Shown: positions 36,554 to 52,356 of the stretch, piece after piece
Layout of the letters: each line of letters starts with the position of its first letter
How positions within the stretch are numbered: the stretch's first letter is position 1
NCBI GenBank assembly: GCA_016188005.1
Contig: JACPIQ010000056.1
Span: forward strand, 1-64,000
Length of the DNA: 64,000 nt
Direction: 5' to 3'
From: Candidatus Rokuibacteriota bacterium
GTDB taxonomy: Bacteria; Methylomirabilota; Methylomirabilia; Rokubacteriales; CSP1-6
The notes under the pieces: model-generated
The model's database searches: none
Seen by the model: only the letters and a program-made list of their open reading frames with translations
What the model was told of the DNA's origin: nothing
Position numbers and translations under genes: made by a program

Positions 36554-37522
36554 TCAGCGCGGCGAAGGAGGGGTCCGCCGGCGCCAGTAGTCGAGGAGGT
36601 CGCTGAGCGTCTGCTCGAAGGGGATCTCCACCTTCCAGCCCGTGGCCTTGTGCATCCTGGAGGGATCGCCCTCGAGCACCATGACGTCGGAGGGGCGGAG
36701 CCGCGCGGGATCGGTCTCGACCTGGATCCCCTTCACCGTGGACTGATCGAGGAGGAAGTCGAGCACCTGCTGGATGGCCCAGGTGCGCCCCGAGCAGAGG
36801 TTGTAGACCTCGCCGGGCTCGCCGTGCTCCAGGAGCAGCCAGTAGCCGCGCACGATGTCGCGCACGTCGGAGTAGTCGCGGCGCGGCTTGAGGTCGCCCA
36901 CGTGGATGACGGCCTCTCGCAGCCCCGCCTCGATCTCGGCCACCTGTTTGGCGAAGTTGGAGGTCACGAAGACATCGCCTCGACGCGGCCCCTCGTGGTT
37001 GAAGGCGCGGCTCCTGATGATGGGCAAGCCGTAGCTCTTGAAGTACTGGTACCCCATCGTATCCTGGGTCACCTTGCTCACGGCGTACGGCGACAGCGGC
37101 CGCAGCGGATTGCTCTCCTTGATGGGGAGCTCCTCCGGGTAGCAGAGGCCGTACTCCTCGCTGCTGCCGACGACGAGGAGGCGGGGGCAGATCTTGAGCC
37201 CCCGGATGGCCTCGAGCAGGTTCACCTGCGAGAGGATGTTGATGCTCAGCGTCTCCGCCGGCGCCTGCCAGGAGGCCCCCACGAAGCTCTGGGCGGCGAG
37301 GTGGACCACGTAGTCGGGCTGGGCGGTCTCCAGGAGCCCGCGCACGGAGGAGAGATCACGCAGGTCCGACTCGATCAGGGTGATCTTCGATCGCAGGTGG
37401 TCGATGTTCTCCGTCTTGCTCCGCCAGCGGGCCGACCCGAACACCTGGGCGCCGCGGGCCAGGGCGAACTCGGTCATGTGGCTGCCGACGAACCCCGTGA
37501 TTCCGGTGATCAGTACTCGCAT
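36554..37522 (-). CDS. GDP-mannose 4,6-dehydratase-like SDR
   Basis: 322 residues, extended SDR. NAD motif TGITGFVGSH (7-15); catalytic SSEEYG (120-125), Tyr146 and Lys150 in SPYAVSK; and the GMD-like blocks FNHEGPRRGDVFVTSNFAKQ and RDYSDVRDIVRGYW. Probably makes GDP-4-keto-6-deoxymannose for rhamnose-, fucose- or perosamine-type sugars; an RMD-type reductase or epimerase role is possible because it is shorter than usual GMD. It is preceded by a possible promoter in the gap after the GT4 gene. Confidence 0.8.
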   Translation of the reverse strand: MRVLITGITGFVGSHMTEFALARGAQVFGSARWRSKTENIDHLRSKITLIESDLRDLSSVRGLLETAQPDYVVHLAAQSFVGASWQAPAETLSINILSQVNLLEAIRGLKICPRLLVVGSSEEYGLCYPEELPIKESNPLRPLSPYAVSKVTQDTMGYQYFKSYGLPIIRSRAFNHEGPRRGDVFVTSNFAKQVAEIEAGLREAVIHVGDLKPRRDYSDVRDIVRGYWLLLEHGEPGEVYNLCSGRTWAIQQVLDFLLDQSTVKGIQVETDPARLRPSDVMVLEGDPSRMHKATGWKVEIPFEQTLSDLLDYWRRRTPPSPR

Positions 37523-37578: not shown

Positions 37579-37584
37579 ATTATA
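37579..37584 (-). promoter_or_regulatory. TATAAT -10 candidate before the GMD-like gene
   Basis: A perfect TATAAT on the minus strand overlaps the stop of the upstream GT4 gene, 57 bp before the GMD-like start, in otherwise very GC-rich sequence. No good -35 lies 16-18 bp upstream. Could give an internal promoter for the last four genes of the locus. Confidence 0.35.
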
Positions 37585-38737
37585 ACCTAGACGCGACGCA
37601 GTCGGACGCTGGAAAAGCCCGCAGGACCTCGCGGTAGAGCGTGGCGACCTCGGCCGCCATGCGATCGGCCGAGAAGTGCCTGGCCACGCGCGCCCGCCCC
37701 TCGGCCCCCATGACGCCTCTCCGCGCGTCGTCCCCCAGGAGCGCCCCCACCGCCGCGGCCAGCGCCCGCGGATCCCGCGCCGGCACCAGCAAGCCGGTCA
37801 CGCCCTCCTCGACCACATCGACATGCCCCGGCACCCGGGTGGCGACCACGGGAACCTCGCAGGCCATGGCCTCGAGGAGCGTCAGCGGCAGCCCCTCTCC
37901 GAGCGAGGCGGAGGCGTAGACATCCATGGCGGGCAGGCACCGCGCCGCGTCGGGAATGGCTCCGGCAAAGACCACCCGCCCGTGGACCCCGAGCGCGGCG
38001 GCGCGCGCCCGCAGCTCCCGCTCCCCGCCCCCCTGCCCCACGAGCAGGAGCGCCACCGACGGGAAGCGCGCGGCCAGCGCGGAGAGTCCCTCCAGCAGGA
38101 CGCCGAGCGCCTTCACCGGGTCGAAGCGGGCGATGGTGCCGATCACGAGCGCCCGGGGCGGGAGCCCGAGCGCCTCGCGGGTCAGCGGCCGCTCTCCGGC
38201 GAGGGCCCTCACCCGCGCCAGGTCGATCCCGTTGACGATCACCCGGGAGCGGTTCACGGGTGAGAGCCCGAGCGCTCTCGCCTCGCGCGCCTGACTCTCG
38301 GAGACATGGACGAGGGTGTGTGTGAGGCGCGCCAGCCCACGCTCGAGTGCGAGGTACCCCCAGCGCAGGCCCGGCGGGTACCCCGAGTAGTGCAGACCGT
38401 GAAAGGTGTGGATGGCCGGGATGCCTACCGCGCGGGCGCCGAGCCTGCCGTACAGCCCGGCGCCCTTGCCGTGGGAATGCACCAGCCGGATCCCGTGCCG
38501 GCGGACGAGGCGGACGACCGCGCTCAGGGCGCCCGGCGAGAGCCGGTCGGAGGCCACCTCCACCACGTGGGCTCCGAGCTGTCGAAACGTCTCCACGTAC
38601 GGGCCCCCGCCCGGCGTCCCGACGCTGACGGCGAACTCCGTCCGCGGCAGCCGCGCGATCACGTCGCGGACATGGGCAGGCCCACCGCCGAGCTCCGACG
38701 AGACGAGCAGCTCGAGCACCCGTATCGGGGCTGACAC
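37580..38737 (-). CDS. GT4 glycosyltransferase
   Basis: 385 residues. VLELLVSSELGGGPAHVRDV, VHSHGKGAGLYGRLGARAV, HTFHGLHYSG, nucleotide segment IGTIARFDPVKALGVLLEGL, EX7E-like LGEGLPLTLLEAMACEVPVV. A typical lipopolysaccharide/capsule retaining transferase; donor unknown. GTG start 38735-38737 lies one base after the GT2 stop (TGAGGTG). Confidence 0.88.
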   Translation of the reverse strand: MSAPIRVLELLVSSELGGGPAHVRDVIARLPRTEFAVSVGTPGGGPYVETFRQLGAHVVEVASDRLSPGALSAVVRLVRRHGIRLVHSHGKGAGLYGRLGARAVGIPAIHTFHGLHYSGYPPGLRWGYLALERGLARLTHTLVHVSESQAREARALGLSPVNRSRVIVNGIDLARVRALAGERPLTREALGLPPRALVIGTIARFDPVKALGVLLEGLSALAARFPSVALLLVGQGGGERELRARAAALGVHGRVVFAGAIPDAARCLPAMDVYASASLGEGLPLTLLEAMACEVPVVATRVPGHVDVVEEGVTGLLVPARDPRALAAAVGALLGDDARRGVMGAEGRARVARHFSADRMAAEVATLYREVLRAFPASDCVASRL

Positions 38738-38738
38738 C

Positions 38739-39533
38739 TCAGCGCCCCAGCGCCGCCCGCAGCCCGCGCCGCAGCGCCGCGGGCAGCGCGAGCGCCGCGG
38801 CCGGGCGCAGGGCGTGCACCGCGCAGCGCCAGGGATAGTCGCCGCGGCGGATCGCCTGCCAGCGCACCCGGGCCTCCGTGCGCAGGCGGTCTCCCTCCCG
38901 CTCGATCGAGACCCGGCCGGGCAAGAGCCGCCGGACCACGAGCACATCGCGCAGGTTGGCCATGCGGGTGGCGCGGCTCAGGCGCATCCACAGGTCGTAG
39001 TCCTGGGCCACCGGGAGCGTCTCGTCGTAGCCGCCTGCCCGCTCGCAGAGCCAGCGCCGCAGCATCACCGAGGAGTGGACGAAGGGGTTCTCGCGGATCA
39101 GCGCGCGCCGGAGGGCGGCATCGTCCTCCGGGGGGCGGACCACGCGCACCTCGCGTCCGGCGCCGTCCACCTCACGCGCCGCCGTCCCCAGGAGCCCCAC
39201 CTCCGGGTGGGCGTCGAGGAAGACGCGCTGGCGAGCCAGCCGTTCGGGCAGCGCGAGGTCATCGGCATCGAGCCGGGCCACGAGAGGGGCCCGGGCCAGC
39301 CCCAGCGCCCGGTTCAGCGCGGGCGTGAGCCCCCGGGGCTTCCCGCGCTCCAGCCTGAGCCTCGGATCGGGCACCGCCTCGAGGAGCCCGGGGGTCCCGT
39401 CGGTGGAGCCATCGTCGATCACGATGAGCTCCAGGTCTCCGGCGGTCTGGGTGAGCACGCTCTCGACCGCCTCCCGCACCCAGGGGGCGCCGTCCCGGAC
39501 GGCCATCAGCACCGATACCGCGGGCGCGCTCAC
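38739..39533 (-). CDS. GT2 family glycosyltransferase
   Basis: 264 residues, GT-A inverting transferase. VSVLMAVRDGAPWVREAVES, LIVIDDGSTDGTPGLLE, the metal-binding DXD in VARLDADDLALPERLARQ, and ENPFVHSSVMLRR, AQDYDLWMRLS (catalytic acidic residues). GTG start in a GTGA overlap with the methyltransferase stop upstream. Confidence 0.9.
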   Translation of the reverse strand: MSAPAVSVLMAVRDGAPWVREAVESVLTQTAGDLELIVIDDGSTDGTPGLLEAVPDPRLRLERGKPRGLTPALNRALGLARAPLVARLDADDLALPERLARQRVFLDAHPEVGLLGTAAREVDGAGREVRVVRPPEDDAALRRALIRENPFVHSSVMLRRWLCERAGGYDETLPVAQDYDLWMRLSRATRMANLRDVLVVRRLLPGRVSIEREGDRLRTEARVRWQAIRRGDYPWRCAVHALRPAAALALPAALRRGLRAALGR

Positions 39534-40402
39534 GCCGGGGCCCGCCGGGCCTCCAGGGCCAGCACCCGGGCCCAGTGCCTCACACCGGGCAGCCGTCCGA
39601 AGCGCCGCTCGAGGCGGAAGCGGCGCTCGGCATCCGGGGCGACCCGCCGGGAGCACGGGATCCAGTAGCCCGAGACGCGCACCCCGGTGAAGCCCGCTCC
39701 GCGGCACAGCCGGCCCAGCTCGCCGCGGGTGACGAAGTCGTGGGTCGCCCAGTTGCGCTCGTCGGTCCAGAACTCGCGCGCGTGATAGGTGGCCAGGTAC
39801 TTGCGGAAGAGGCGGGCGGCCCGGAGCAGATTGTGGTGGGGCTCGAGCAGGTAGAGCCGCCCCGCGGGCCTGAGCGCCCGGGCCAGCGTCGCGAAGACCT
39901 CGGGGCGCCGGTGGAAGTGGTGGAGGCTCTGGATGACCAGCGCCGAGTCGAAGGCGCCGGCGGCGACCCCGGCGGCCCAGGTCTCCGCGGTGGCGGTCAC
40001 CACCTCCACGTTGGCCAGCCCCTCCGCCCGGCAGCGCTCGCGCAGCAGGCGCGCGAGGTCGGGGACGGGCTCCACGGCGAGGACGCGCTCGGCCCGGCGG
40101 GCGATGAGCGCCGTGAAGTAGCCGCTGCCGGCCCCGAGCTCCAGTGCGCGGCCATAGCCCTCGGGAGCCCAGTGGGAAGCGACGAGGGGCTGCGCCGGGT
40201 ACTCGTGCTGTTCCGCCTCGGCGTAGCCGTGGATGCTGTCGTAGGCGGCGGCCCTCTCCCCGGAGTAGATCTCCTCGTTGAACGCGCGGTTGATCCGGTC
40301 GAGCCGCTCGCGCGAGGCGGGCGACAGGAGCGCGAGCTTGAGCGGATGGGGCAGCAGCAGGTACAGGAGATAGTTCCGCCGCCCGATCTCGATGCGGATC
40401 AC
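39530..40402 (-). CDS. SAM-dependent methyltransferase (class I) A
   Basis: 290 residues. An N-terminal ~80-residue extension, then SAM motif I ALELGAGSGYFTAL (ELGAGSG at 88-94), acidic loop VLAVEPVPDL, and motif LVIQSLHHFH. Likely O-methylates a sugar of the glycan, from context. GTG start in a GTGA overlap with the next methyltransferase upstream; the two run in tandem. Confidence 0.8.
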   Translation of the reverse strand: MIRIEIGRRNYLLYLLLPHPLKLALLSPASRERLDRINRAFNEEIYSGERAAAYDSIHGYAEAEQHEYPAQPLVASHWAPEGYGRALELGAGSGYFTALIARRAERVLAVEPVPDLARLLRERCRAEGLANVEVVTATAETWAAGVAAGAFDSALVIQSLHHFHRRPEVFATLARALRPAGRLYLLEPHHNLLRAARLFRKYLATYHAREFWTDERNWATHDFVTRGELGRLCRGAGFTGVRVSGYWIPCSRRVAPDAERRFRLERRFGRLPGVRHWARVLALEARRAPA

Positions 40403-41337
40403 CGCTTGCGGAACACGAGGTTGAAGTACGGGAGGGCCAGAGAGGGGCTCTGCCCCGCCGCCGCCAGGAGCGCGCAGCAGATGGCGAAGAGCGGGAGCAC
40501 GGCCCGCCGGGCGCGCGAGCGCGCGGTGTCGCGGAAGAAGCGCCAGCCGTAGCCCGCCGCCTCGGTGGCATCCTCGAGGCCGGCCCCGCCCGTCGAGGGC
40601 AGGCACTCACGGAGCGAGGCGTTGCGCCAGCCCGTCCCGTCCGCCGTGAACTCCTCGTAGGGCACCGCCCGGAACGTGCCGGCCCTGAGAGCCCGCGCGT
40701 AGCGGTACGCGAGCCCAGACGGCAGCCACTGCACCAGCGGCAGCCCCACCGAGTGCGTCTCGAGGGGAAAGAGCCGATTCGGCGTGTCCAGGATGGCGAT
40801 GTGGCCGCCGGGCGCGAGGACGCGGTAGTACTCGTCCACCTGCGCGCGCCGGGTGCGCACCGGCAGGTGCTCGATCACGCCGATGACGAGGACGAGGTCG
40901 AAGGCGCCATCGGCATACGCCAGGCGCTGCGTCTCGTCGTTGCCGAGGAGCGCGACCTCCCGGACCCGGCCGAGACCGAGCTCCTCGACCTTGGCGCGGA
41001 CCATGGCGACGAAGGCGGGATCCGTGTCGAAGGTCGCGATCCGGGCCACCTCGGGCTGCTCGGCCACGTACTCGGTGATGTGGCCGAAGGAGCAGCCGAC
41101 TTCGAGCACGGACAGGCCGCGGGCTCCGCGGCCCCGGAGGTAGCGGAACAGCGGCTCCAGGAAATGGCGGCCCCGGCTCTCCTTGAACGGGAAGTAGAGC
41201 GCCGCGCGGCGGGCCCCCTTGCGCTCGACGAGCATGCGCACGACGCGCTCGCTGTAGGCCGTGCTGTACTCGTGGCCGGCGACGGTGAGCACGCGCCGAT
41301 CGCCGAGGTCGCGGAGCCGGTAGTCGGGTTCGCTCAT
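40399..41337 (-). CDS. SAM-dependent methyltransferase (class I) B
   Basis: 312 residues. Motif I VLEVGCSFGHITEYVA (79-85 EVGCSFG), acidic Asp in IATFDTDPAFV, LVLVIGVIEHLPVRTR and LAPGGHIAILDTPNRLFPLE. A hydrophobic C-terminal segment (LPLFAICCALLAAAGQSPSL) could anchor it to the membrane. The ATG at 41335-41337 follows a 21-bp spacer carrying TATACT, a possible leaderless promoter. Confidence 0.82.
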   Translation of the reverse strand: MSEPDYRLRDLGDRRVLTVAGHEYSTAYSERVVRMLVERKGARRAALYFPFKESRGRHFLEPLFRYLRGRGARGLSVLEVGCSFGHITEYVAEQPEVARIATFDTDPAFVAMVRAKVEELGLGRVREVALLGNDETQRLAYADGAFDLVLVIGVIEHLPVRTRRAQVDEYYRVLAPGGHIAILDTPNRLFPLETHSVGLPLVQWLPSGLAYRYARALRAGTFRAVPYEEFTADGTGWRNASLRECLPSTGGAGLEDATEAAGYGWRFFRDTARSRARRAVLPLFAICCALLAAAGQSPSLALPYFNLVFRKR

Positions 41338-41344
41338 CCCTGGC

Positions 41345-41350
41345 AGTATA
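41345..41350 (-). promoter_or_regulatory. TATACT -10 candidate, leaderless start
   Basis: TATACT on the minus strand ends 7 nt before the ATG of methyltransferase B, so transcription would begin at or next to the start codon (leaderless mRNA). It sits in one of the few non-overlapping junctions of the locus. The -35 region is not convincing. Confidence 0.35.
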
Positions 41351-41358
41351 GCAACGGC

Positions 41359-42186
41359 TCAGCGGCGCGAAGGCTTGACCGCCACGGCGAGGATCATGTG
41401 GGCGAAGAGGCGCAGGGTGGGCGGCGCGTAGAGGAGGCCCCGGAGGATCCGCCCCACGGCGGCACGGACCCCCGGCGGAGGCGCTGGCGCGTGTGGGGGG
41501 CGGTGAGTGACCGGTGCTCCCACCCCTGCGGGGAGCCTGCGCTCCCGCCGCGTGACGCCGCGGAGCGCCTGCCGAAGCATGCGGGCGGGATCGTAGGGAT
41601 GGAAGGAGCGGACCTGGAACCCGCGCGCCTCGAGGAAGCGGCACACCTCGCCCCGCGTGAAGGCGAACTGGTAGAAGTCGCCACCCCGGGCGCGGCTCCG
41701 CCGCGCCTCGCGCGCCAGCCAGGGGCCGAGGAGCCGGCGCGCGCCATTCCAGTACGGGACCGACAGCAGGAGCGTTCCGCCCGGAGCGAGGACGCGGGCC
41801 GCCTCGGCGACGATGGCGTCGGGACCGCCGGGATCGTGCTCGACGACTCCCAGGGAGAGATACGCCCGCACCGCCCCGTCCCGGACGGCGAGCGCGCGAA
41901 GGTCCATCACGGCGAGCGGCGCGCCGGCGCGAACCCCCTGACGGAGCGCCTCGAGGCTCCAGTCGGCGCCGACCGCGGCCCGTCCGCGCGCCCTCAGGAG
42001 CAGCACGTACTGGCCGAGCCCGCAGCCCGCCTCCAGGAAACGGCCGTCGGCGGGCAGGTGGCGCTCGATGAGGCCGGTGAGGGGGGAGCGGACCGCGACA
42101 GCCAGGAGCTCCTCCACGGAGTGCCCGCCCCAGTGCTCGCTCCAGAACGCGGAGGTGGCCGAGCGCGAGTAGTAGGCCAGCGGCAC
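41359..42186 (-). CDS. SAM-dependent methyltransferase (class I) C
   Basis: 275 residues. FLEAGCGLGQYVLLL (52-58 motif I EAGCGLG), VGADWSLEAL, LSLGVVEHDPGGPDAI, LAPGGTLLLSVPYWN. Basic, proline-rich stretch at ~225-245, then a hydrophobic end (LFAHMILAVAVKPSRR). GTG start 42184-42186 lies two bases after the GT4 stop. Confidence 0.8.
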   Translation of the reverse strand: MPLAYYSRSATSAFWSEHWGGHSVEELLAVAVRSPLTGLIERHLPADGRFLEAGCGLGQYVLLLRARGRAAVGADWSLEALRQGVRAGAPLAVMDLRALAVRDGAVRAYLSLGVVEHDPGGPDAIVAEAARVLAPGGTLLLSVPYWNGARRLLGPWLAREARRSRARGGDFYQFAFTRGEVCRFLEARGFQVRSFHPYDPARMLRQALRGVTRRERRLPAGVGAPVTHRPPHAPAPPPGVRAAVGRILRGLLYAPPTLRLFAHMILAVAVKPSRR

Positions 42187-42188
42187 CC

Positions 42189-43337
42189 CTAGCGCCTCCC
42201 CCGCCCCACGTCCTCGAGGAGCGCGATCTCCCGCGCCACGAGGGCCGGGAGACCGTAGCGCTCCTCGATGAGCGCGCGGGCAGCGCTCGCCAGCGAGGCC
42301 GCGAGCCCGGGCTCGGTGAGCACCCGGACGAGGCAGGAGGAGAGCGCCTCTGGGCTCCGCGGATCGAACAGGAGCCCGGTCTTCTCGTGGGTGACGATCG
42401 ACCGATTCCCCTCGCAGTCGGACGCCACGCAGGGCAGCCCGCAGGCCATGGCCTCGAGGAGCACCTTCGGGTGGCCCTCGGTGAACGAGGCCAGGACGAA
42501 CGCGTCGGCCGACGCGTAGATCTCGGGCAGCGTCCTCTGGTCCATCACGCCCAGGAACTGCACGTCAGCGCGAAGCTCCCTTGCCAGAGCCTCGAGCTCG
42601 TCCTTCTGAGGCCCGGCACCAACGGTGACGAGCTGGACCCCGGCTCCGTGCTGGGCCTGGATCGCGGCGCCGGCCGGCTTGGTCGCCCACACCAGCGTCT
42701 CCAGGTTCTTCTCTTCAGACAGGCGCCCGACGTAGAGGATCCGTCGAGGCGCTCCCGGCGGGCGTCCCGCGCGGTCCCCGCGAAAGGCGAAGAGCCCGGT
42801 GTCGACCCCGTTGGGGATCAGCTCCACCCGCCGCGCGCCCAGCGACAGCGCGCGCGCGCGCAGCGCCTCGGTGGTGGCGATCACGGCGGCAGCGCGCCTG
42901 AGCCCCCGGCGCTCCACGACCGCCTTGACCCAGCGCTTCGGGCCCGGGCGGGAGAGGCGGCCATAGGAGAAGCCATAGGTCGTGACATAGGGGATGCCGA
43001 AGCGACGGCGTGCGGCCAGCGCCGGGATCACGCCCGTGATCTGGAACACCCTCAGGACGTCGCACTGGCGGAACTCGGTGGCATGGGCGCGCGTCATCGC
43101 CAGGGCCCGCCGGCCCCGCCACAGGGGTCGTGGGGACGCGAGCACCGTCACGCGCGCCAGCAGCTCCGGATCGTCGGTGAACTCGGCCAGGGATTCCGGC
43201 AGATAGCTGAAGTAGTAGAGACCGTCGAAGGCCCGCGCATAGGGACGCAGGTAGCCGTCGACGAGCCGGGACTGCTGGCCCGTCGTCGCCAGCTCGCGGA
43301 TGCCGCCGCCGAGGGCAGGCAGGAGCCCGACCCGCAT
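42189..43337 (-). CDS. GT4 glycosyltransferase
   Basis: 382 residues. MRVGLLPALGGGIRELATTG, then PYVTTYGFSYGRLSRPGPKR, ELIPNGVDTGLFAF, ILYVGRLSEEKNLETLVWAT with Arg and Lys intact, and EX7E-type SFTEGHPKVLLEAMACGLPC. ATG 43335-43337 overlaps the stop of methyltransferase D by one base (TGATG). Confidence 0.88.
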   Translation of the reverse strand: MRVGLLPALGGGIRELATTGQQSRLVDGYLRPYARAFDGLYYFSYLPESLAEFTDDPELLARVTVLASPRPLWRGRRALAMTRAHATEFRQCDVLRVFQITGVIPALAARRRFGIPYVTTYGFSYGRLSRPGPKRWVKAVVERRGLRRAAAVIATTEALRARALSLGARRVELIPNGVDTGLFAFRGDRAGRPPGAPRRILYVGRLSEEKNLETLVWATKPAGAAIQAQHGAGVQLVTVGAGPQKDELEALARELRADVQFLGVMDQRTLPEIYASADAFVLASFTEGHPKVLLEAMACGLPCVASDCEGNRSIVTHEKTGLLFDPRSPEALSSCLVRVLTEPGLAASLASAARALIEERYGLPALVAREIALLEDVGRGRR

Positions 43338-44125
43338 CAGGGCGCCTTCCTCGCCACCGCGCGGAAGCCCGTGCTCTCCTGCGGCCGGCGCAGCACGGCG
43401 GCTCGCTTCCACCGGCTCAGACGGTCATAGAGCGTCAGCGAGAGTCCCCCGATGGCGTCGATGGCACCCGCCCAGGGCGTGTCCAGCACCACCGGCATGA
43501 GGTCGCCCTCGACCGTGAAGCCGCCCGCGCGGAGCTCGGCCAGGAACTCCGCCCGCGTGTACTCGATCTTGTGATCGGGATCGGAGTAGGCGAACAGCGC
43601 CGCCTCCCGCAGGGTCTGCCGCCAGCGCGTCTCGCGGTTGGGCCCCGAGACCAGCAGGTGCCCATCGTCCTTCAGCACGCGGCGGATCTCGCGGAGCACG
43701 CCCACGCGCGGCGTCAGATGCTCGATCACGTCGAGGAAGAGCGCGGCGTCGAACAGGCGGTCGGGGAAGGGAAAGGGCCCGGTGATGTCCCAGGCGAAGA
43801 CCCGCGCATTGGCGAGGCCCTGCTCGCGGATCCCCCGCGCGGCGATGGGCAGCTGGCCCAGGTCGTAGTCGAAGCCGACGATGGCGCGGCAGCGCGTCGC
43901 CGCGCGCCGGAGATGGGCACCGTTGGCGCAGCCGACATCGAGGACGAGATCCCCGGCGTCCAGGTACGGCAGGTACCAGTCGTGCCACGCATGCCCGACG
44001 AGGTGCTTGGGGTGAATGGGGTACGGGCGCTTCCCCGTCCAGTGCACGAGCCGGACGCCCACGGCCTTGCCACGACGGTTGACGAGGTCCACGGCCCGTA
44101 CCAGGAGTCGCCCGAGCGCGGTCAC
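43337..44125 (-). CDS. SAM-dependent methyltransferase (class I) D
   Basis: 262 residues. HAWHDWYLPYLDAGDLVLDV followed by GCANGAHLRRA (motif I, 63-69), acidic Asp in IVGFDYDLGQL, LFLDVIEHLTPRVGVLREIR, DDGHLLVSGPNRETRWRQ. GTG start within a GTGA overlap with the upstream GT4 gene. Confidence 0.83.
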   Translation of the reverse strand: MTALGRLLVRAVDLVNRRGKAVGVRLVHWTGKRPYPIHPKHLVGHAWHDWYLPYLDAGDLVLDVGCANGAHLRRAATRCRAIVGFDYDLGQLPIAARGIREQGLANARVFAWDITGPFPFPDRLFDAALFLDVIEHLTPRVGVLREIRRVLKDDGHLLVSGPNRETRWRQTLREAALFAYSDPDHKIEYTRAEFLAELRAGGFTVEGDLMPVVLDTPWAGAIDAIGGLSLTLYDRLSRWKRAAVLRRPQESTGFRAVARKAP

Positions 44126-45270
44126 GCGGTCCCCTTCCCGCCGCGGCGGCGCCACGCCTCCAGCGCCCGCTCGTAGACCCGGCGCGTCCCGTCGACACAC
44201 CCCTCCCAGCGGAACAACCTGTCGACCCGCTCGCGGCCGGCGGCCCCGAGCCGTGCCCGCAGCCCGCTGTCCTCGAGCAGGAGAAGCAGCCGCTCCACGA
44301 AGCGGCCCGGTGCCGCCGGGTCGCACAGGAAGCCCGCCTCGCCGTCCCGCACCAGCTCGGGGATCGAGCCCCGGTCCGAGGCCACCACCGGCACGGCCGA
44401 GGACATGGCCTCGGCCACGGTGAGCCCGAACCCCTCCATGGCGGAGGGGAAGACGAAGACGTCGCCGAGGTTGAAGTGCGGGGCCTTCTCGGCGTCCGGA
44501 ACGTAGCCGGTGAACACCACGCTCTCCCCGAGCCCGATCCGCCGCGCGTGTCGGCGCAGCGCCCCGAGGAGCGGGCCGCCTCCCGCCAGGAGGAGCCGCG
44601 CCTCCGGCCGGCGGGCGACCACCGCGCTCCAGACATCGAGGAGGAGGAAGAGGTTCTTCCGCGGCTTGAGGCCGCCGAAGAAGAGCACGGCGGGCCGGCC
44701 GCGGAGCCCGTAGCGCTCCACCAGGTCCGCCCGGCGCGGGCGCGGCGCGAAGACGGGATCGACGCCGTAGTGGACCACCGACACGTGATCGGTCCGCGCC
44801 CCGAGATCCTCGCCGAGCTGCCGCCGGCCGAACTCGCTGCCCACCACCACGGCGTCGGCGCCCTCGACGACGCGCTTCTCGATGAGGGCGTTGAGCGGGC
44901 TCGGGTCCAGGTGATGGTGATGGGCGACCACCGGCACATCCAGTCCGAAGCGGCGCCGCGCCCACAGGGCCGAGGGGCCGATGTACCGCAGGGAGTGGAC
45001 CCGGAGGAGGTCGAAGCCCACGCTGTCCCAGACCCGCTTGACGGCCCGGGGCACCACGGCGGGGGCGACCCACCAGCGCAGCCCCCGGCCCATCGGGAAG
45101 CGGTGGACGGTCCAGTTCTGCGCCTCGGCGGGATACGGTCGGCCCCGTGCCAGGATGATCTCGATCCGGGCCCCGGCGCGGCCGAGCCGGACCAGGAGCT
45201 CCCGCTCGTAGGTTTCTCCCCCCGAGGTCGTCTCGGGGGCCACACCGCAATGAGGCGTGCAGATCCGCAT
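44122..45270 (-). CDS. GT4 glycosyltransferase
   Basis: 382 residues. MRICTPHCGVAPETTSGGET, VPVVAHHHHLDPSPLNALIE, FFGGLKPRKNLFLLLDVWSA (nucleotide site), and MEGFGLTVAEAMSSAVPVVA (EX7E). The start ATG 45268-45270 lies 4 bp after the methyltransferase E stop. A retaining GT-B transferase of the locus; donor unknown. Confidence 0.88.
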   Translation of the reverse strand: MRICTPHCGVAPETTSGGETYERELLVRLGRAGARIEIILARGRPYPAEAQNWTVHRFPMGRGLRWWVAPAVVPRAVKRVWDSVGFDLLRVHSLRYIGPSALWARRRFGLDVPVVAHHHHLDPSPLNALIEKRVVEGADAVVVGSEFGRRQLGEDLGARTDHVSVVHYGVDPVFAPRPRRADLVERYGLRGRPAVLFFGGLKPRKNLFLLLDVWSAVVARRPEARLLLAGGGPLLGALRRHARRIGLGESVVFTGYVPDAEKAPHFNLGDVFVFPSAMEGFGLTVAEAMSSAVPVVASDRGSIPELVRDGEAGFLCDPAAPGRFVERLLLLLEDSGLRARLGAAGRERVDRLFRWEGCVDGTRRVYERALEAWRRRGGKGTA

Positions 45271-45274
45271 GCCG

Positions 45275-45937
45275 TCACCGCTTCCGGGCGATGACGACAT
45301 AGCCGGTCGTGTAGCTGGAGAGAAAGGCCGAGCGGGCCGTCGCCGCGCGGTGGTCGAGCCGGCCCAGGCAGAAGCCCACCGCGAGCACGGGCAGCGCCAG
45401 GAGCGCTCGCAGCGGCCGCGAGGCCACCTGGGCCCCGGCCTGGCGCAGCATGTGGGCGAGGGTGCCGAAGAAGTATCCCTGCTGGGTGACCTGGTCCACG
45501 CGGAGACCGGCGCGCTCGAGAAGCTCCACCAGCCGCCCCCCCGAGAAGCGCTGGCGATCGGCGATGTGATCCACCCGGTGCAGGAGCGGCGCCGAGAGCA
45601 CCAGCTGGCCATCCGGGACGAGGACGCGACTGAACTCGGCCAGCATGGTCTCGTAGCGGTCCACGTACTGTATGACTTCCTGGCACAGGATCCGGTCCAC
45701 CGAGGCTTCCCTGATGGGGAGCGCCTCGGCATCGCCCAGGATGTCCGGCTCGGCCCGCGGGTCGATGTTCAGCAGCACCCAGCGCCTGACGGCGCCCCGG
45801 GGCGGGCGGAAGCGTCCGCGCGGCTGGCGCCGGCCGCCCACGTCCAGCACCACGCCCCTGAAGCTCCCCGCACAGCGCGCGAGCTCGGCGTCCAGGAGGG
45901 TGCGGCGATGGGAGGCTCCGAGGGAGGTGCGGATCAT
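45275..45937 (-). CDS. SAM-dependent methyltransferase-like protein E
   Basis: 220 residues, short. Motif I is atypical, [14 protein letters not shown], with the usual Gly-rich loop altered; then [59 protein letters not shown]. The pattern matches methyltransferase_11-type proteins found in glycan loci. ATG 45935-45937 overlaps the GT4 stop (ATGA). Confidence 0.72.
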
Positions 45938-47232
45938 GACGCCTGCGCCTCGCCCCGCACCTCTCGGTAGAGAGCGAGCATCAGGTCGACGCTCGTCTCG
46001 GCATCCAGCTGCCGCTCGATGTGGCGCCGCGCCTGGGTGCCGAGCGCGCGCCGGAGCGCGTCGTCGGCGAGGAGCCGCGTGATGGCGCGCGCCAGCCCAT
46101 CGGGGTCGCCCCGCTCCACCAGGAGGCCGGTGACGCCGTCCTCGATGAGCTCGGGGGTGCCGCCCACACGGGTGCCGATGACGGGCCGGCCGGCCGTCAT
46201 CGCCTCGACGATCACCCGGCTCAGCGCGTCGGGAATCACCGAGGGTGTCACCACCATGTCGGCCACGGCGTACAGCGCGAGCACCTCGGCATTGGGCAAG
46301 GCCCCCAGCCGGCGGATCCAGGGGGCCCCGCTGGCGCCGGGGAGCTCGCCGTCGCCCACGAAGACGAACAGGGCCTCGGGAACCGTCTCGACCACGCGGG
46401 CGGCGGCCGCCGCCACGTCGGGCGTGCCCTTGCCGGGAGAGAGCTTGCCCACGCAGAGGATGACGGGGTGGCCCGCGAGCCCGTGGGCCCGGCGCAGGGC
46501 GGCGGCCCGCTCCTCGGAGGCGGGCACCAAGACGGGGGGAATGGTGTGGATCGTCCGGACCCGACGCACCCCCTCGAGGAGACCGGAGCGCCGGTAGACG
46601 TCGAGGATCCCGTCGCTCACGCCGACCACGGCGTCGAGCCGCCTGAGCAGGCGCTGCTTGAACGAGGCATCGAGCCAGCCGGCCAGGAAGCCCAGCTTGA
46701 CGCGAAGCCGGCGGCGCCGTCCCGCCCCGTACAGGGCGAAGTACTCCTCGGAGCACTCGCGCCAGAGCTTCCGCACGCCGCAGTCGGCGGGCCGCCTGTC
46801 CCCGTGGTGCAGGCACATGGGCGCCGCGTCGATGAGGCTTCCGTCGCGGATCGTGAGCACCAGCGGCACCCGGGTGAGCGCGCGGGCGATGATGCCGGGC
46901 AGCAGCATGTGCTTGTTCTGGGCGTGCAGGACCTGGGCGCCCTCGGCGCGCGCGATCCGCGCCAGCTGGAGCCCGGCCCAGAGGGCGAAGAGCGGGCTCC
47001 GCAGCACGCGCGGCGGCAGCCCGGGGCGCCCGGGTTCGCGCTTGAGGGGGAACGGGAAGCGCCGCACGCGGACTCCGTCGCGCTCCTCCACGGCCGGGGC
47101 GCCGTAATTGGGCGTGACCACCACGACGCGGAGCCCGCGGCGGGCGAGCGCCCGGGCGAGCGCCTCGGTGCTCCACTCCGCGCCGCCGGGAGCATGCGGC
47201 GGGAAATACTCGTTGGCGAGGCAGACGTTCAT
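45934..47232 (-). CDS. GT4 glycosyltransferase
   Basis: 432 residues. [40 protein letters not shown], an insert with three Cys ([20 protein letters not shown] and ECSEEY) near 140-160, then [20 protein letters not shown] and the EX7E-like [20 protein letters not shown]. The Cys cluster between the lobes occurs in some capsule GTs and may bind metal. ATG 47230-47232 overlaps the deacetylase stop (ATGA). Confidence 0.88.
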
Positions 47233-48038
47233 GCCGTCGCTGCCTCGCGCACCGTGACGTAGCCACCGGCGGGCGCCGCCAGCAGCAGCCGCTCCAGCCA
47301 CGGAAGCCCACCCAGCACCACGTCCCTGTCATGGAAGGCCAGGACGCGCGCGTCGTCGATCGGGGTCAGCCCCTCGGCGGGCGCCCAGCGGAGGGCGCCG
47401 AGACAGGAGAGGTAGCGGAGCCCGGTCTCGGCGGCGGCGGCCAGCGTCTTGCGCGAGAGCACATTGCCGGGGGGCACGAAGGTCTCGACGGCGCGGCCGA
47501 GGAAGTCCTGGAGGATCGCCTGGGCTCGGCGGAGATGCTCGCGGTGGACGGCCTCCGGGAGCCAGTCGTAGAACTCGCGGTGTGCGGCACGGTTCCCCGA
47601 GAACCAGCGGGGGCGGAACCGCCCTCGGTCGAGGAGGCAGTGGGTGTAGCCGTGGTTGGCGACCTCGAGCAGGCCCCGCTCGACCCCCTGGCGCAGGAGC
47701 CGGCTCGCCTCGGGAAACTTCTCCGGGTAGGCCCTGACCGCGCCATCGGCTTCCACCCAGCCGGCGGTGACGGCCACCGTCATGCGGCAACCCCGGGCGG
47801 CGAGCTGCCCGAGCAACGCCTCCCAGTCCGAGGCGGCGAGCTCCCGATACGGCCCCCATCGCTTGATCGGCGGCAGGTACTTGAGGAAGAGGACATTGCC
47901 GGGCAGCGGCAGCGCCATCCCGCCCAGCCTGAGGCGGGTGAGCCCGTACACCTCGTGGCGCTTGGAGGCGGCCCCCACATCGTCCATGCGCAGCGCCATC
48001 GGCGACGCGCTCACCCCGGGGCCGCCTCCCACGCTCAC
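47229..48038 (-). CDS. Polysaccharide deacetylase family protein
   Basis: 269 residues, NodB-like fold. [11 protein letters not shown] (Asp19/Asp20 in motif 1), [11 protein letters not shown] (His129, His133; the H-x3-H zinc motif), [20 protein letters not shown] (motif 3-like), and HDRDVVLGG near the end. Likely removes N-acetyl groups from the glycan or a precursor. The GTG at 48038 gives the GTGA overlap seen throughout this locus; a GTG two codons earlier is possible. Confidence 0.75.
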
Positions 48039-48835
48039 TTCCACGCCAGGATCTCGATGCTCGGCGAGATGCGGAAGAGCCGGTAGTAGCCGCGGATCAT
48101 CGGCCAGAGGGGGCTCCCCGACTCCCGGGCGCGCGTCCCGGACGGGCCCAGCGGGACGATGCGCGTGCCGGCGTCCCGAAGCAGCCGCTCGAGCGGCCCG
48201 CGCAGGAGCGGCGTGAGCGTGTCGACGAAGCGCGTGGGCCGTCCCCGCAGCCGCAGGTAGCAGCGCGCCACGGTCCGCGGCATCCCCGGAAGCCAGAAGA
48301 GCTTGTAATGCCCCTCGTAGCAGGCCAGGGCGCTCGGCGCGTGAAGGTAGAGCGCGCCGCCCGTCCTGACCACGCGTACCATCTCCCGCACGGCCGCGGC
48401 CGCATCGGCGACGTGCTCGAGCGTGGAGAAGCAGTACACGAGGTCGAAAGCACCTGCGCTGAACGGCAGATGCTCCGCCGCTGCCAGGATCGGGCCGCCG
48501 GCTCCCTCGGCCGCCGCCTTGAGCCGGCAGATCTCGACGGCCTCGGGCTCGGTGTCCACGCCCATGGCGGCGGCGCCCGCCCGCCGCGCGATCACGGTGA
48601 ACCCTCCCGTGCCACAGCCCACGTTCAGGATCGCCAGCCCCGCCACCGTGCGCCCGAGGGCCGCCTCGAGCCGATCCAGGTGCATCGCCTCGTGGGTCTC
48701 CTCGTCAAGGCGCGCCTCGACCAGTGCCGCCCAGGCGGGGATGCCGAGGGTGTCACGGTAATAGCGGGTGTAGTACTCGGCGACCCGACGGCGGACGGGC
48801 TCGGGCCATGGGCGCGGGGAGCCGGCCGGGCTCAT
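48035..48835 (-). CDS. SAM-dependent methyltransferase (class I) F
   Basis: 266 residues. ILNVGCGTGGFTVIARRAGA (71-77 motif I), AMGVDTEPEAVEICRLKA, LVYCFSTLEHVADAAAAVRE, VRTGGALYLHAPS and ACYEGHYKLFWLPGMPR. Sixth methyltransferase of the locus. ATG 48833-48835 overlaps the aminotransferase stop (ATGA). Confidence 0.84.
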   Translation of the reverse strand: MSPAGSPRPWPEPVRRRVAEYYTRYYRDTLGIPAWAALVEARLDEETHEAMHLDRLEAALGRTVAGLAILNVGCGTGGFTVIARRAGAAAMGVDTEPEAVEICRLKAAAEGAGGPILAAAEHLPFSAGAFDLVYCFSTLEHVADAAAAVREMVRVVRTGGALYLHAPSALACYEGHYKLFWLPGMPRTVARCYLRLRGRPTRFVDTLTPLLRGPLERLLRDAGTRIVPLGPSGTRARESGSPLWPMIRGYYRLFRISPSIEILAWK

Positions 48836-49998
48836 GGCGAGAGCCGCGAGCGAAGCGCCTCCACGACGGTCACCCGTTCCTCGGGTGTGATCCCCACCGA
48901 GCACGGCAGCGACAGCCCGCGGTCGTAGAGCCGGGTGGCGACGTCCACGCGATAGGCCTGGGCGCCGGCGAAGAGCGGCTGCAGGTGCAGCGGGCGCCAC
49001 AGCGGCCGGGCGCCGATGCCGGCGGCGCTGAGCTCCCGCAGCAGCGCCCGGACATCGGGGCAGCGCCGCTGCGGCAGGAGCGCCGCGGCCATCCAGTAGC
49101 TCGAGCGCGCCCAGGGAGCCTCGACGAACGGGCGCACGCCGTCGATGGCCCCCAGGGCCTCCCGGTAGAAGGCGGCGGTGGCGCGCTTGGACTCGATGAA
49201 GCCGTCGAGCTGCTCGAGCTGGGCCACGCCGAGGGCCGCCTGGATATTGGTGAGGCGGTAGTTGAAGCCCAGCTCCTCGTGGATGTACTCGATGGGGTCG
49301 GTGCGGGCTTGCGTGGTCAGCGTCCGCAGGCGGCCGGCCAGCGCGGCATCCCCGGTCAGCACCATGCCGCCCCCCCCCGTCGTGATGATCTTGTTTCCGT
49401 TGAAGGACAGACAGGCGAGCCGCCCGTCGCCGCCCACGCGGCGGCCCCGATACCGCGCGCCCAGCGCCTCGGCCGCGTCCTCGACGATCGCCAGCGGATA
49501 GCGGCCGGCCACCTCGAGCAGCGGGTCGAGGTCGCAAGGGTGGCCGTAGAGATGCACCGGCAGGAGCGCGCGCACGACGCGGCCGGTGGCGCGGTTGACG
49601 GTGCGCCCGGCCCTCGTGAGGCACTCCCGGGCGAGGAAGTCGGCCACCTTCTGCGGGTCCACCCCCCAGGAGGCCTCCTCCGAGTCGAGGAATACCGGAT
49701 GCGCGCCACAGTAGGCGACGGCATTGGCGGTGGCGATGAAGGTCAGACTGGGGACCAGCACCTCGTCGCCGGGCTCGACGCCGGCGACCCTCAGCGCCAC
49801 GTGGAGCGCGGCGGTGCCATTGACTGTCGCCACGGCGTGGGGAGCGCCCACGTAGCGCGCCACCTCACGCTCGAAGCGCTCGATGAACGGCCCGGCCGAG
49901 GAGACCCAGTTCGTGTCGAGGCACTCCTTGAGGTACCTCCACTCATTGCCCGCGAGCCGGGGCACAGCGTTCGGAATGGGGGGCGTGCGCGGGATCAC
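48832..49998 (-). CDS. DegT/DnrJ/EryC1 sugar aminotransferase, LegC-like
   Basis: 388 residues, PLP enzyme acting on NDP-4-keto sugars. LDTNWVSSAGPFIERFER, LVPSLTFIATANAVAYCGAH, IVEDAAEALGARYRG, and the PLP lysine Lys203 in CLSFNGNKIITTGGGG; this last block and the NWVSSAG segment are typical of LegC-family aminotransferases. In the legionaminic-acid route it would aminate GDP-4-keto-6-deoxy-GlcNAc. GTG start at 49998 overlaps the SDR stop (GTGA). Confidence 0.85.
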   Translation of the reverse strand: MIPRTPPIPNAVPRLAGNEWRYLKECLDTNWVSSAGPFIERFEREVARYVGAPHAVATVNGTAALHVALRVAGVEPGDEVLVPSLTFIATANAVAYCGAHPVFLDSEEASWGVDPQKVADFLARECLTRAGRTVNRATGRVVRALLPVHLYGHPCDLDPLLEVAGRYPLAIVEDAAEALGARYRGRRVGGDGRLACLSFNGNKIITTGGGGMVLTGDAALAGRLRTLTTQARTDPIEYIHEELGFNYRLTNIQAALGVAQLEQLDGFIESKRATAAFYREALGAIDGVRPFVEAPWARSSYWMAAALLPQRRCPDVRALLRELSAAGIGARPLWRPLHLQPLFAGAQAYRVDVATRLYDRGLSLPCSVGITPEERVTVVEALRSRLSP

Positions 49999-50981
49999 GG
50001 CCGGCCTCCGCGTCGCTCCCACCAGGCCCGGTACCAGTCGAAGGTCTCCCCGACCCCTGCCTCGAGCGGCACCTTCGGGGCGAAGCCCGTCAGGGCGCGG
50101 AGCCGCGTCAGGTCGGGACAGCGGCGCTCCACCGAGCCCGGCGGGGCGGGCAGGTGCTGGATGGCGGGCTCGAAGCGGGCCGCCCGCAGGATGATCCGCA
50201 GGAGGTCCTCCATCGTGGTCTCCTCGCCGTCATTGCCGATGTTCACGACCCGTCCCCGGGCGGCCTCGACCGCCACGAGACGGGTCATGGCCTCCACGGC
50301 GTCGGCCACGTGGCAGAAGGCGCGACGCTGCGCGGCGCCGTAGAGGCGGAAGGGGCGCTCCCGCCTGACGGCGCGGAGGGACAGCTCCGGGACGACGTGG
50401 TCGGTGCCCATGCGCGGCCCGTAGACATTGTGGAAGCGGCCGATCACGACGGGAAGACGGCGGGCCCGCGCGGTATGGATCACCGCGGCCTCGCCCAGGA
50501 TCTTGCTGGCGGCGTAGGCGAAGCGCGGGGCGGCCACGTCGGGGACGGAGAGCGGCACATCCTCGGGCGTGGGCACGGGCAGCGCCCCTGCCGTGACGCC
50601 GCCCGCATAGGTCTCGCTGGTGGAGGCGAAGAAGAGCACCTCGCCGCCGCCGGGCAGCCAGTCGAGCACCTCCAGCACGGAGCGTGTGTTGACGCGGATG
50701 ACGCGCGCGGGATCGCTCTCGACGTTCCGGACTCCCACCACGGCCGCCAGCATGTACACCTGCTCCCACTGGCGCGGCAGCGAGCCGAGCGCGCCAGGGC
50801 GCGTGAGATCTGCCTGGACGAGCACGACGTTCGGGCGGGCGCAGAGGGCCTGGAGCTCCGCGTCCCGGCGGCCCCGGGAGAGGTCGTCGACCAGGGTCAG
50901 GGCATGCCCCTCCCCGGCCAGGCGCGAGGCCAGATGGTAGCCGATGAAGCCGGCCCCGCCGAGGACGAGGATTCTAGCCAT
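49995..50981 (-). CDS. NAD-dependent epimerase/dehydratase (extended SDR)
   Basis: 328 residues. GGAGFIGYH (8-16), FASTSETYAG (Ser120-Glu123), Tyr156/Lys160 in YAASK, RFHNVYGPRMGTDHVV and CHVADAVEAM. The S-T-S-E block lacks the Asp-Glu pair of typical 4,6-dehydratases and resembles UDP-glucuronate decarboxylases/epimerases; it could work on the product of the adjacent nucleotide-sugar dehydrogenase. It cannot be assigned with confidence as the missing LegB. Start ATG 50979-50981, overlapping the dehydrogenase stop by 8 bp. Confidence 0.82.
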   Translation of the reverse strand: MARILVLGGAGFIGYHLASRLAGEGHALTLVDDLSRGRRDAELQALCARPNVVLVQADLTRPGALGSLPRQWEQVYMLAAVVGVRNVESDPARVIRVNTRSVLEVLDWLPGGGEVLFFASTSETYAGGVTAGALPVPTPEDVPLSVPDVAAPRFAYAASKILGEAAVIHTARARRLPVVIGRFHNVYGPRMGTDHVVPELSLRAVRRERPFRLYGAAQRRAFCHVADAVEAMTRLVAVEAARGRVVNIGNDGEETTMEDLLRIILRAARFEPAIQHLPAPPGSVERRCPDLTRLRALTGFAPKVPLEAGVGETFDWYRAWWERRGGRP

Positions 50982-52266: not shown

Positions 52267-52275
52267 CGCGCTCGC

Positions 52276-52356
52276 CTCACCGCCAGGGCGCGCTTCGGCT
52301 CGCACCCCCCCGGGTCCATCGCTCCCCTCACCGCCAGCGCGCGCTTCGGCTCGCAC
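52276..52356. repeat. 30-bp direct repeat between two genes
   Basis: Two copies of a 30-bp unit (52276-52305 and 52327-52356), differing at one base and 51 bp apart, fill the 91-bp gap between the dehydrogenase and nucleotidyltransferase genes. Each ends CGCGCTTCGGCTCGCAC. It looks like a short dispersed intergenic repeat. No promoter or terminator is evident in the gap. Confidence 0.75.

What the first reader, a model, noticed from the sequence alone, without database searches (positions are those of the whole stretch)
38739..48835. Six SAM methyltransferases alternating with glycosyltransferases in one coupled run
Between 38739 and 48835 methyltransferases A-F alternate with a GT2, three GT4 genes and a deacetylase, almost all joined by ATGA/GTGA overlaps. 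So many distinct methyltransferases suggests a glycan with several O-methyl groups, as in mycobacterial methylated polysaccharides or phase-variable surface sugars. Each GT-MT pair may act on one residue.
Basis: partly seen in the sequence, partly recalled or inferred. Interest (0 to 1): 0.6.

Follow-up and report, generated by a model that had tools for sequence, protein, structure and literature searches.

The report
Methylation-rich surface glycan operon in Rokubacteria
A Rokubacteria genome carries one long operon that appears to build a surface sugar chain containing a sialic-acid-like sugar, with six unrelated methyl-adding enzymes embedded among the sugar-adding enzymes; some of them change in step with particular sugar-adding enzymes across species, which makes this a large, modular example of a known kind of locus.

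Summary
On the minus strand at 38739-48835 there are six class I SAM methyltransferases (A-F), one GT2, three GT4 and a deacetylase, tightly coupled (6 of 10 internal junctions are 4-base overlaps). Strict alternation is overstated, since A, B and C lie side by side. The run is the middle of a ~32-kb operon that also encodes a legionaminic-type nonulosonic acid pathway, a WcaJ-type primer, a Wzy/ligase-family protein and a PglK/MsbA-like ABC exporter. The organism is a Rokubacteria MAG. Relatives keep the gene set but shuffle and swap parts. The six MTs form six deep, separate families, so they are not recent duplicates. A glycan role is supported by this context, by GT2-MT-D in a single reading frame in an Endomicrobia MAG, by MT-D and MT-F having sugar O-methyltransferases (AtmM, RebM) among their nearest solved relatives, and by co-divergence of MT-E with GT4d, MT-D with GT4b/GT4d, and MT-A/MT-C with GT2. 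Tannerella forsythia has a genetically proven smaller counterpart. No sign of phase variation or of a mycobacterial-type system was found. Methyl positions, and whether all six are active, cannot be settled here.

The parts
39530..40402 (-). MT-A, class I SAM methyltransferase (290 aa), RebM-like 'SLHHF' motif; in a minority of relatives, largely alternative to MT-C; co-diverges with GT2 (small sample)
40399..41337 (-). MT-B, class I SAM methyltransferase (312 aa) with a large C-terminal cap poorly matched in the PDB; also found as an orphan gene in six relatives
41359..42186 (-). MT-C, class I SAM methyltransferase (275 aa); co-diverges with GT2
43337..44125 (-). MT-D, class I SAM methyltransferase (262 aa), nearest solved relatives AtmM and RebM; in one frame with a GT2 in an Endomicrobia MAG; co-diverges with GT4b and GT4d
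45275..45937 (-). MT-E, divergent class I SAM methyltransferase (220 aa; GGRRQ motif I, QY in place of EH); co-diverges with GT4d (partial r 0.94)
48035..48835 (-). MT-F, class I SAM methyltransferase (266 aa), nearest solved relative RebM; WbdD also among matches
38739..39533 (-). GT2 glycosyltransferase
42189..43337 (-). GT4b glycosyltransferase
44122..45270 (-). GT4c glycosyltransferase
45934..47232 (-). GT4d glycosyltransferase; swapped together with MT-E and MT-F between species
47229..48038 (-). Polysaccharide deacetylase family (Polysacc_deac_1/DUF2334), no obvious signal peptide by eye
37580..38737 (-). GT4a glycosyltransferase, accessory (absent in many relatives)
36554..37522 (-). 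SDR nucleotide-sugar enzyme (GDP_Man_Dehyd/LegB-like, below equivalog cut-offs)
35413..36531 (-). GT4x glycosyltransferase, conserved across the class
34022..35419 (-). WcaJ-type undecaprenyl-phosphate hexose-1-phosphate transferase (over equivalog cut-off)
32777..33994 (-). Wzy_C family polymerase or O-antigen ligase/oligosaccharyltransferase
48832..49998 (-). LegC-family aminotransferase (over cut-off)
49995..50981 (-). NAD-dependent epimerase/dehydratase
50974..52356 (-). Nucleotide-sugar dehydrogenase (UDP-ManNAc/UDP-Glc dehydrogenase type)
52358..53416 (-). CBS + nucleotidyltransferase (PtmE-like)
53424..54590 (-). UDP-GlcNAc 2-epimerase, NeuC family (over cut-off)
54587..55648 (-). NeuB nonulosonic acid synthase (over cut-off)
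55645..57609 (-). 654-aa protein with a C-terminal GT4-type domain; candidate nonulosonic acid transferase (inferred)
57606..58250 (-). NeuD-family sugar acetyltransferase (over cut-off)
58258..58986 (-). CMP-sugar cytidylyltransferase (PseF/NeuA-like)
58991..59974 (-). GFO/IDH/MocA oxidoreductase
59989..61512 (-). B12-binding radical SAM protein
61535..62584 (-). MptE-like domain protein (weak similarity to PseD/Maf)
62897..64000 (-). ABC exporter, ABC_membrane + ABC_tran, 619 aa in full (continues past the window end); PglK/MsbA-like candidate flippase

Best explanation
The run is the variable middle of one long operon for a surface glycan. A WcaJ-type enzyme starts the chain on undecaprenyl phosphate. 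GT4x, GT4a, GT2 and GT4b/c/d extend it in the cytoplasm. The upstream genes make a CMP-legionaminic-type nonulosonic acid that is probably added as well. An ABC exporter flips the lipid-linked chain, and a Wzy_C-family enzyme polymerises it or transfers it to its carrier. The six methyltransferases methylate sugar residues of this chain on the cytoplasmic side, most probably on hydroxyls and as or after the matching GT adds its residue: MT-E with GT4d, MT-D with GT4b/GT4d, MT-A or MT-C with GT2. Shown by sequence: gene content, coupling, conservation of the set, separate MT families, co-divergence and cassette swapping. Inferred: O-methylation, the acceptor residues, the order of steps and activity of all six.
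For: Operon content: LegC, NeuB, NeuC, NeuD and WcaJ families all over curated cut-offs; Wzy_C and an ABC exporter at the ends. The set is kept in many Rokubacteria relatives and a reduced MT-D/GT4b-d set recurs in Chloroflexi, Endomicrobia and Daviesbacteria MAGs. In the Endomicrobia MAG, GT2 and the MT-D homologue are one 556-aa reading frame. MT-D's best solved relatives are AtmM (1.4e-17) and RebM (6e-17), and MT-F's best is RebM (1e-17). Co-divergence beyond background: MT-E/GT4d r 0.94, MT-D/GT4b 0.78, MT-D/GT4d 0.72-0.74, MT-C/GT2 0.60-0.79, MT-A/GT2 0.73-0.78 (n = 6), whereas MT-E/GT4c, neighbours here, is about -0.1. Cassette swap: window versus same-genus G001 has MT-F 50, GT4d 46, MT-E 42% identity against 73-86% for the flanking genes, while G001 versus another genus (G019) is 66/61/70. 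Precedent: in the T. forsythia cluster, three MTs were shown by knockout and mass spectrometry to place two O-methyl groups on a nonulosonic acid glycan (PMC6120980).
Against: PDB matches cover only the SAM-binding core, and the folds are generic class I, so the chemistry is not proved. MT-A, B, C and E have no sugar-specific match. MT-B occurs as an isolated gene among housekeeping genes in six relatives. MT-E has a degenerate motif. The partial Mantel tests use 6-18 loci and are not tree-based; genes exchanged as one cassette would co-diverge without acting on the same residue. No dedicated Wzx was seen in the part of the operon examined. No expression data or glycan structure exists.
Confidence: 0.78

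Rival explanations
1. The MTs belong to the glycan pathway but do not all O-methylate the chain: some N-methylate amino groups (the deacetylase and nonulosonic acid genes could supply them), methyl-esterify uronic acids (a sugar dehydrogenase is present), or act on nucleotide-activated sugars before transfer.
For: Deacetylase, LegC aminotransferase and nucleotide-sugar dehydrogenase in the same operon. Four of six MTs have no sugar-hydroxyl-specific relatives. The T. forsythia paper states it is unknown whether methylation there occurs on the nucleotide sugar or after transfer.
Against: MT-D and MT-F are nearest to hydroxyl-methylating sugar enzymes; co-divergence with GTs fits action on the growing chain, but precursor genes were not tested in the same way.
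Confidence: 0.35
2. There are fewer methyl groups than MTs: some are inactive, some cooperate on one position, or A and C are alternatives for one site.
For: MtfJ and MtfO of T. forsythia are both needed for one methyl group although unrelated in sequence. MT-E lacks the usual EH motif. MT-A and MT-C are nearly mutually exclusive in relatives (Fisher p 0.007, not corrected for relatedness).
Against: Each family is well conserved with its own invariant residues, so none looks like a decaying gene; the window and G001 carry both A and C.
Confidence: 0.35
3. One or more MTs cap the chain end and control its length, like WbdD of E. coli O9a or Klebsiella O3/O7.
For: WbdD is among MT-F's PDB matches (4e-8); an ABC exporter is present.
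Against: None of the six is fused to a kinase or coiled-coil ruler (220-312 aa each), and the pathway has a Wzy_C protein and a single-polypeptide ABC exporter, not Wzm/Wzt. Six terminators would be pointless.
Confidence: 0.05
4. The MTs act on lipids, proteins or small molecules and are in this operon only by chance.
For: Class I folds are generic; MT-B is isolated among housekeeping genes in some relatives.
Against: Enrichment P about 1.6e-9, conservation across species and phyla next to the same GTs, the GT2-MT frame, co-divergence.
Confidence: 0.06

Closest known systems
Tannerella forsythia general protein O-glycosylation cluster (PMC6120980)
   Same: About 27-kb polycistronic locus with a nonulosonic acid pathway, four GT-B-type GTs plus one GT2, sugar dehydrogenase and 2-epimerase, and several SAM methyltransferases; MTs shown by knockout to methylate sugar residues
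   Different: Three MTs rather than six; its cluster contains an AsnB-like amidotransferase, not seen in the genes scanned here; builds on a Bacteroidetes core glycan of S-layer proteins; the Rokubacteria operon brings its own WcaJ, Wzy_C protein and ABC exporter
Rebeccamycin/AT2433 sugar O-methyltransferases RebM and AtmM
   Same: Nearest solved relatives of MT-D (AtmM, RebM) and MT-F (RebM); same SAM-binding core; MT-A shares the SLHH motif
   Different: Similarity is limited to about 105 residues of the core for MT-D; RebM/AtmM act on a sugar of a small natural product; MT-D, B, C and F have EH where RebM/AtmM have HH
Legionaminic acid (CMP-Leg) pathway
   Same: LegC, NeuB, NeuC, NeuD families over cut-off, PtmE-like CBS-nucleotidyltransferase, cytidylyltransferase
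   Different: No gene reaches the LegB equivalog cut-off; the exact nonulosonic acid is unproved
Klebsiella O3/O7 and E. coli O9a methyltransferase terminators (WbdD, ORF6-O7; PMC11231755)
   Same: Methyltransferases in glycan assembly, sometimes fused with GT modules
   Different: No kinase, coiled-coil ruler or Wzm/Wzt; many MTs
Mycobacterial methylmannose/methylglucose polysaccharides
   Same: Several O-methyl groups on a polysaccharide (from the literature)
   Different: Intracellular polysaccharide with its own small gene set (general knowledge); no mycobacterial methylmannose or methylglucose MT was matched here

Membership tests
Class I SAM-dependent methyltransferases | Methyltransf_11/25 match over gathering score and Rossmann fold | tested here: met
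   All six over the Methyltransf_11 cut-off, MT-E weakest; AF2 models of MT-D and MT-B match class I MTs
RebM/AtmM-type sugar O-methyltransferases | Closest relatives among solved structures are sugar O-MTs | tested here: inconclusive
   Met for MT-D and MT-F, core region only; not for A, B, C, E
RebM/AtmM-type sugar O-methyltransferases | HH pair after motif II | tested here: inconclusive
   HH in MT-A; EH in B, C, D, F; QY or EH in E
Legionaminic-type nonulosonic acid pathway | LegC aminotransferase, NeuB synthase, NeuC epimerase and NeuD over curated cut-offs | tested here: met
   464 vs 420, 451 vs 400, 425 vs 236, 184 vs 161 bits
Legionaminic-type nonulosonic acid pathway | LegB dehydratase equivalog and dedicated CMP-Leg synthase | tested here: inconclusive
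   Two SDRs match LegB below cut-off (158 and 90 vs 475); PseF 145 vs 206
WcaJ/Wzy-type lipid-linked glycan assembly | WcaJ-type primer over cut-off and Wzy_C protein | tested here: met
   488 vs 411 bits; Wzy_C 1e-25
WcaJ/Wzy-type lipid-linked glycan assembly | Wzx flippase in the locus | tested here: not met
   No Wzx match among the operon genes scanned; an ABC_membrane + ABC_tran exporter is present instead
T. forsythia-type O-methylated nonulosonic acid glycan cluster | Nonulosonic acid genes, several GTs and several SAM MTs in one transcription unit | tested here: met
   transcription itself not tested
T. forsythia-type O-methylated nonulosonic acid glycan cluster | Methyl groups on the released glycan | not testable with these tools
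   Needs mass spectrometry or NMR
Recent tandem duplication of one MT | In-cluster MTs are each other's closest relatives | tested here: not met
   Six separate families at SH-aLRT 99-100, scattered among other MTs of the genome; a deep single origin is not rejected (AU p 0.136)
Phase-variable glycan locus | Long homopolymer or short-repeat tracts in coding genes | tested here: not met
   Longest is one C9 in DegT, others 8 or fewer; three GC/CG dinucleotide repeats of 5-7 units
Mycobacterial methylated polysaccharide system | MTs of the mycobacterial methylmannose/methylglucose families | tested here: inconclusive
   Only weak sub-cutoff matches such as MftM 29 vs 200 bits; none named among PDB hits shown; no direct comparison with the mycobacterial enzymes was run

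The most novel reading that the evidence does not exclude
Each added sugar may have its own dedicated methyltransferase, with GT and MT evolving and being exchanged as matched pairs (GT4d/MT-E, GT4b-GT4d/MT-D, GT2/MT-A or MT-C), so that a single chain carries up to six site-specific methyl groups beside a legionaminic-type acid, and swapping a GT-MT cassette changes the surface type of the cell, for instance against phages.
Probability: 0.2. Interest if true: 0.62.

Novelty: new variant of a known kind. Interest (0 to 1): 0.42.

Why it matters
Methylated bacterial glycans are rarely studied and their role is unclear (PMC6120980). This locus is a dense case, in an uncultured soil and groundwater phylum, with enough natural variants to predict which methyltransferase belongs to which glycosyltransferase. 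Such predictions can be tested by expressing the genes in a laboratory strain, and they offer a way to annotate the many generic methyltransferases in glycan loci.

Tried and rejected
PDB sequence searches and Foldseek on AF2 models of MT-D and MT-B gave only generic class I MTs beyond the AtmM/RebM hits; MT-B's cap matched nothing well (TM about 0.4). One AU test (MT-A+B+D) did not finish. Phase variation was rejected. The WbdD-type terminator reading was rejected, and the mycobacterial polysaccharide reading was set aside for lack of any matching gene. Simple adjacency as evidence for GT-MT pairs was rejected because neighbours are permuted between species; co-divergence was used instead. 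Presence/absence tests of MT-E or MT-F with GT4d were not significant (p 0.12). A search of relatives of the Endomicrobia MAG for the GT2-MT frame could not be run, so that fusion rests on one contig. Literature searches for Rokubacteria glycans and RebM catalysis gave nothing useful.
Full report
WHAT IS THERE. The window is part of a 104-kb contig (C56) of a 5.37-Mb, 140-contig MAG. Named relatives that carry the same cluster are Candidatus Rokubacteria/Rokuibacteriota from soil and groundwater. The finding's genes are real: frame plots, ORFs and Pfam agree on eleven minus-strand genes between 38739 and 48835, namely six class I methyltransferases (A-F), one GT2, three GT4 and a polysaccharide deacetylase. 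Six of ten internal junctions are 4-base overlaps; the others are a 1-base overlap and gaps of 2, 4 and 21 bases. MT-A, B and C are consecutive, so the pattern is interspersed rather than strictly alternating.

IS IT MORE THAN CHANCE. The genome has 55 Methyltransf_11 places, so about 0.1 is expected in 10 kb; six has a Poisson probability near 1.6e-9. Two further polysaccharide loci of this genome (contigs C7 and C8, with Wzy_C, sulfotransferase and asparagine-synthase-like genes) are also MT-rich, so MT-rich glycan loci are a trait of the organism.

THE SURROUNDINGS. The run is the middle of a minus-strand operon of about 32 kb. Downstream (lower coordinates) are GT4a, an SDR, GT4x, a WcaJ-type primer over its equivalog cut-off, and a Wzy_C protein. 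Upstream (higher coordinates) are a LegC aminotransferase, an SDR, a nucleotide-sugar dehydrogenase, a PtmE-like CBS-nucleotidyltransferase, NeuC, NeuB, a 654-aa protein with a C-terminal GT domain, NeuD, a cytidylyltransferase, an oxidoreductase, a B12 radical SAM protein, an MptE-like protein and a 619-aa ABC exporter. LegC, NeuB, NeuC, NeuD and WcaJ pass curated cut-offs. This is an assembly line for a lipid-linked glycan with a legionaminic-type nonulosonic acid. No Wzx was found among the genes scanned; the ABC exporter may flip the chain (inference).

COMPARISON. Of the 47 relatives placed in the same family by the search (G001-G047), about fifteen hold a recognisable MT-D/MT-B cluster. 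The outer genes (GT4x, the primer, the SDR) are conserved widely, GT4x even in other families of the class. The inner genes vary: MT-A, MT-C, MT-E, MT-F, the deacetylase and GT4a come and go, and the order is permuted; MT-D lies beside GT4b and GT4c here but beside GT4d in many relatives. MT-A and MT-C are nearly mutually exclusive (not corrected for relatedness). The nonulosonic acid block is itself replaced by a different NeuB type in G037 and G017. MT-B is found outside the cluster, alone among housekeeping genes such as a sigma factor, carboxylase subunits or a peptide transporter, in six genomes, three of which also have the cluster without MT-B in it. Two loci labelled Acidobacteria (L150) and Elusimicrobia (L152) look like misbinned Rokubacteria contigs.

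ORIGIN OF THE METHYLTRANSFERASES. With thirty other MTs of the genome as background, the six form six separate families at SH-aLRT 99-100, joined to different background MTs with weak backbone support. Pairwise similarity among them is low. They are therefore not recent duplicates. A single deep origin is not rejected (AU p 0.136).

ARE THEY GLYCAN ENZYMES. (1) Context and conservation as above. (2) Solved relatives: MT-D is nearest to AtmM (labelled D-glucose O-methyltransferase) and RebM; MT-F nearest to RebM; the rest match generic MTs. These matches cover mainly the SAM-binding core. (3) Distant MT-D homologues in Chloroflexi, Endomicrobia and Daviesbacteria MAGs are flanked by the same kinds of GT4. 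In the Endomicrobia contig L146 an MT-D homologue and a GT2 are one 556-aa reading frame, followed by two fused GT4 domains and, further on, a GT4d-like gene overlapping an MT-E-like gene. One contig only. (4) Co-divergence: correlating pairwise divergence of each MT with each GT, with conserved outer genes as background, gives MT-E/GT4d 0.94, MT-D/GT4b 0.78, MT-D/GT4d 0.72-0.74, MT-C/GT2 0.60-0.79 and MT-A/GT2 0.73-0.78 (n = 6), all rarely or never reached in 300-500 permutations; MT-E/GT4c, adjacent here, gives about -0.1, and MT-D/GT2 about 0. The MT-E/GT4d and MT-D results survive leaving out the most divergent loci. MT-B correlates moderately with GT4b and GT4d, and GT4b with GT4d, so part of this is shared replacement of a block. 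(5) Cassette swap: the window and its same-genus relative G001 share 73-86% identity in the flanking genes but only 50/46/42% in MT-F/GT4d/MT-E, while G001 and the more distant G019 share 66/61/70% there. MT-F, GT4d and MT-E have thus been exchanged together.

HOW IT MOST LIKELY WORKS. The chain is primed by WcaJ on undecaprenyl phosphate, extended by GT4x, GT4a, GT2, GT4b-d, methylated in the cytoplasm during growth, capped or decorated with the nonulosonic acid, exported, and polymerised or transferred by the Wzy_C protein. Everything after gene identity is inference. The nearest tested system is the T. forsythia cluster, in which three MTs add two O-methyl groups and two unrelated MTs are needed for one of them (PMC6120980). 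Six MTs therefore need not mean six methyl groups. MT-E lacks the common EH motif and might be unusual or need a partner.

WHAT IT IS NOT. No phase-variation signal: the longest run is C9 in the aminotransferase gene; by my estimate about two runs of nine or more C are expected by chance in 30 kb of this composition (for the runs). No mycobacterial-type MTs were matched, though those enzymes were not compared directly. No WbdD-type fusion terminator.

LIMITS. MAG data, inferred starts, small samples, non-tree-based co-divergence test, single fusion contig, no transcript or glycan data.

Noticed in passing
59989-62584: B12-binding radical SAM protein and an MptE-like (weakly Maf/PseD-like) protein at the head of the nonulosonic acid genes, conserved in G005; could modify or transfer the nonulosonic acid.
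   Followed up: partly
L146:1909-3579 and L146:3576-5819: Endomicrobia MAG: GT2 and MT-D homologue in one 556-aa frame, and GT4c-like and GT4b-like domains in one 747-aa frame.
   Followed up: partly
L085:16676-17623, L089:12275-13231, L092:1510-2364, L094:1125-2081, L088:1716-2660, L080:9813-10823: MT-B homologues as single genes outside any glycan cluster, next to sigma-70, acyl-CoA carboxylase or peptide ABC transporter genes.
   Followed up: yes
L125-L129 (G000 contigs C7 and C8): Two further MT-rich polysaccharide loci in the same genome; C7 has two more NeuB genes, a sulfotransferase and two Wzy_C proteins, C8 has asparagine-synthase-like proteins, a Wzx-type flippase and Wzy_C.
   Followed up: partly
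L150 and L152: Loci labelled Acidobacteria and Elusimicrobia carry Rokubacteria-like clusters (L152 closely matches Rokubacteria L156 in per-gene similarity), suggesting misbinned contigs.
   Followed up: no
G037 and G017 clusters (L076, L075): The nonulosonic acid block is replaced by one with a different NeuB type (46-49% identity) while the outer glycan genes are kept.
   Followed up: partly
L196:2753-3385 (contig C56 64753-65385): Winged-helix regulator gene (HTH_24) overlapping the start of the ABC exporter gene at the head of the operon.
   Followed up: no
48832-49998, C9 tract at 49370: Longest homopolymer in the operon lies in the LegC aminotransferase gene; at chance level for this composition.
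   Followed up: yes
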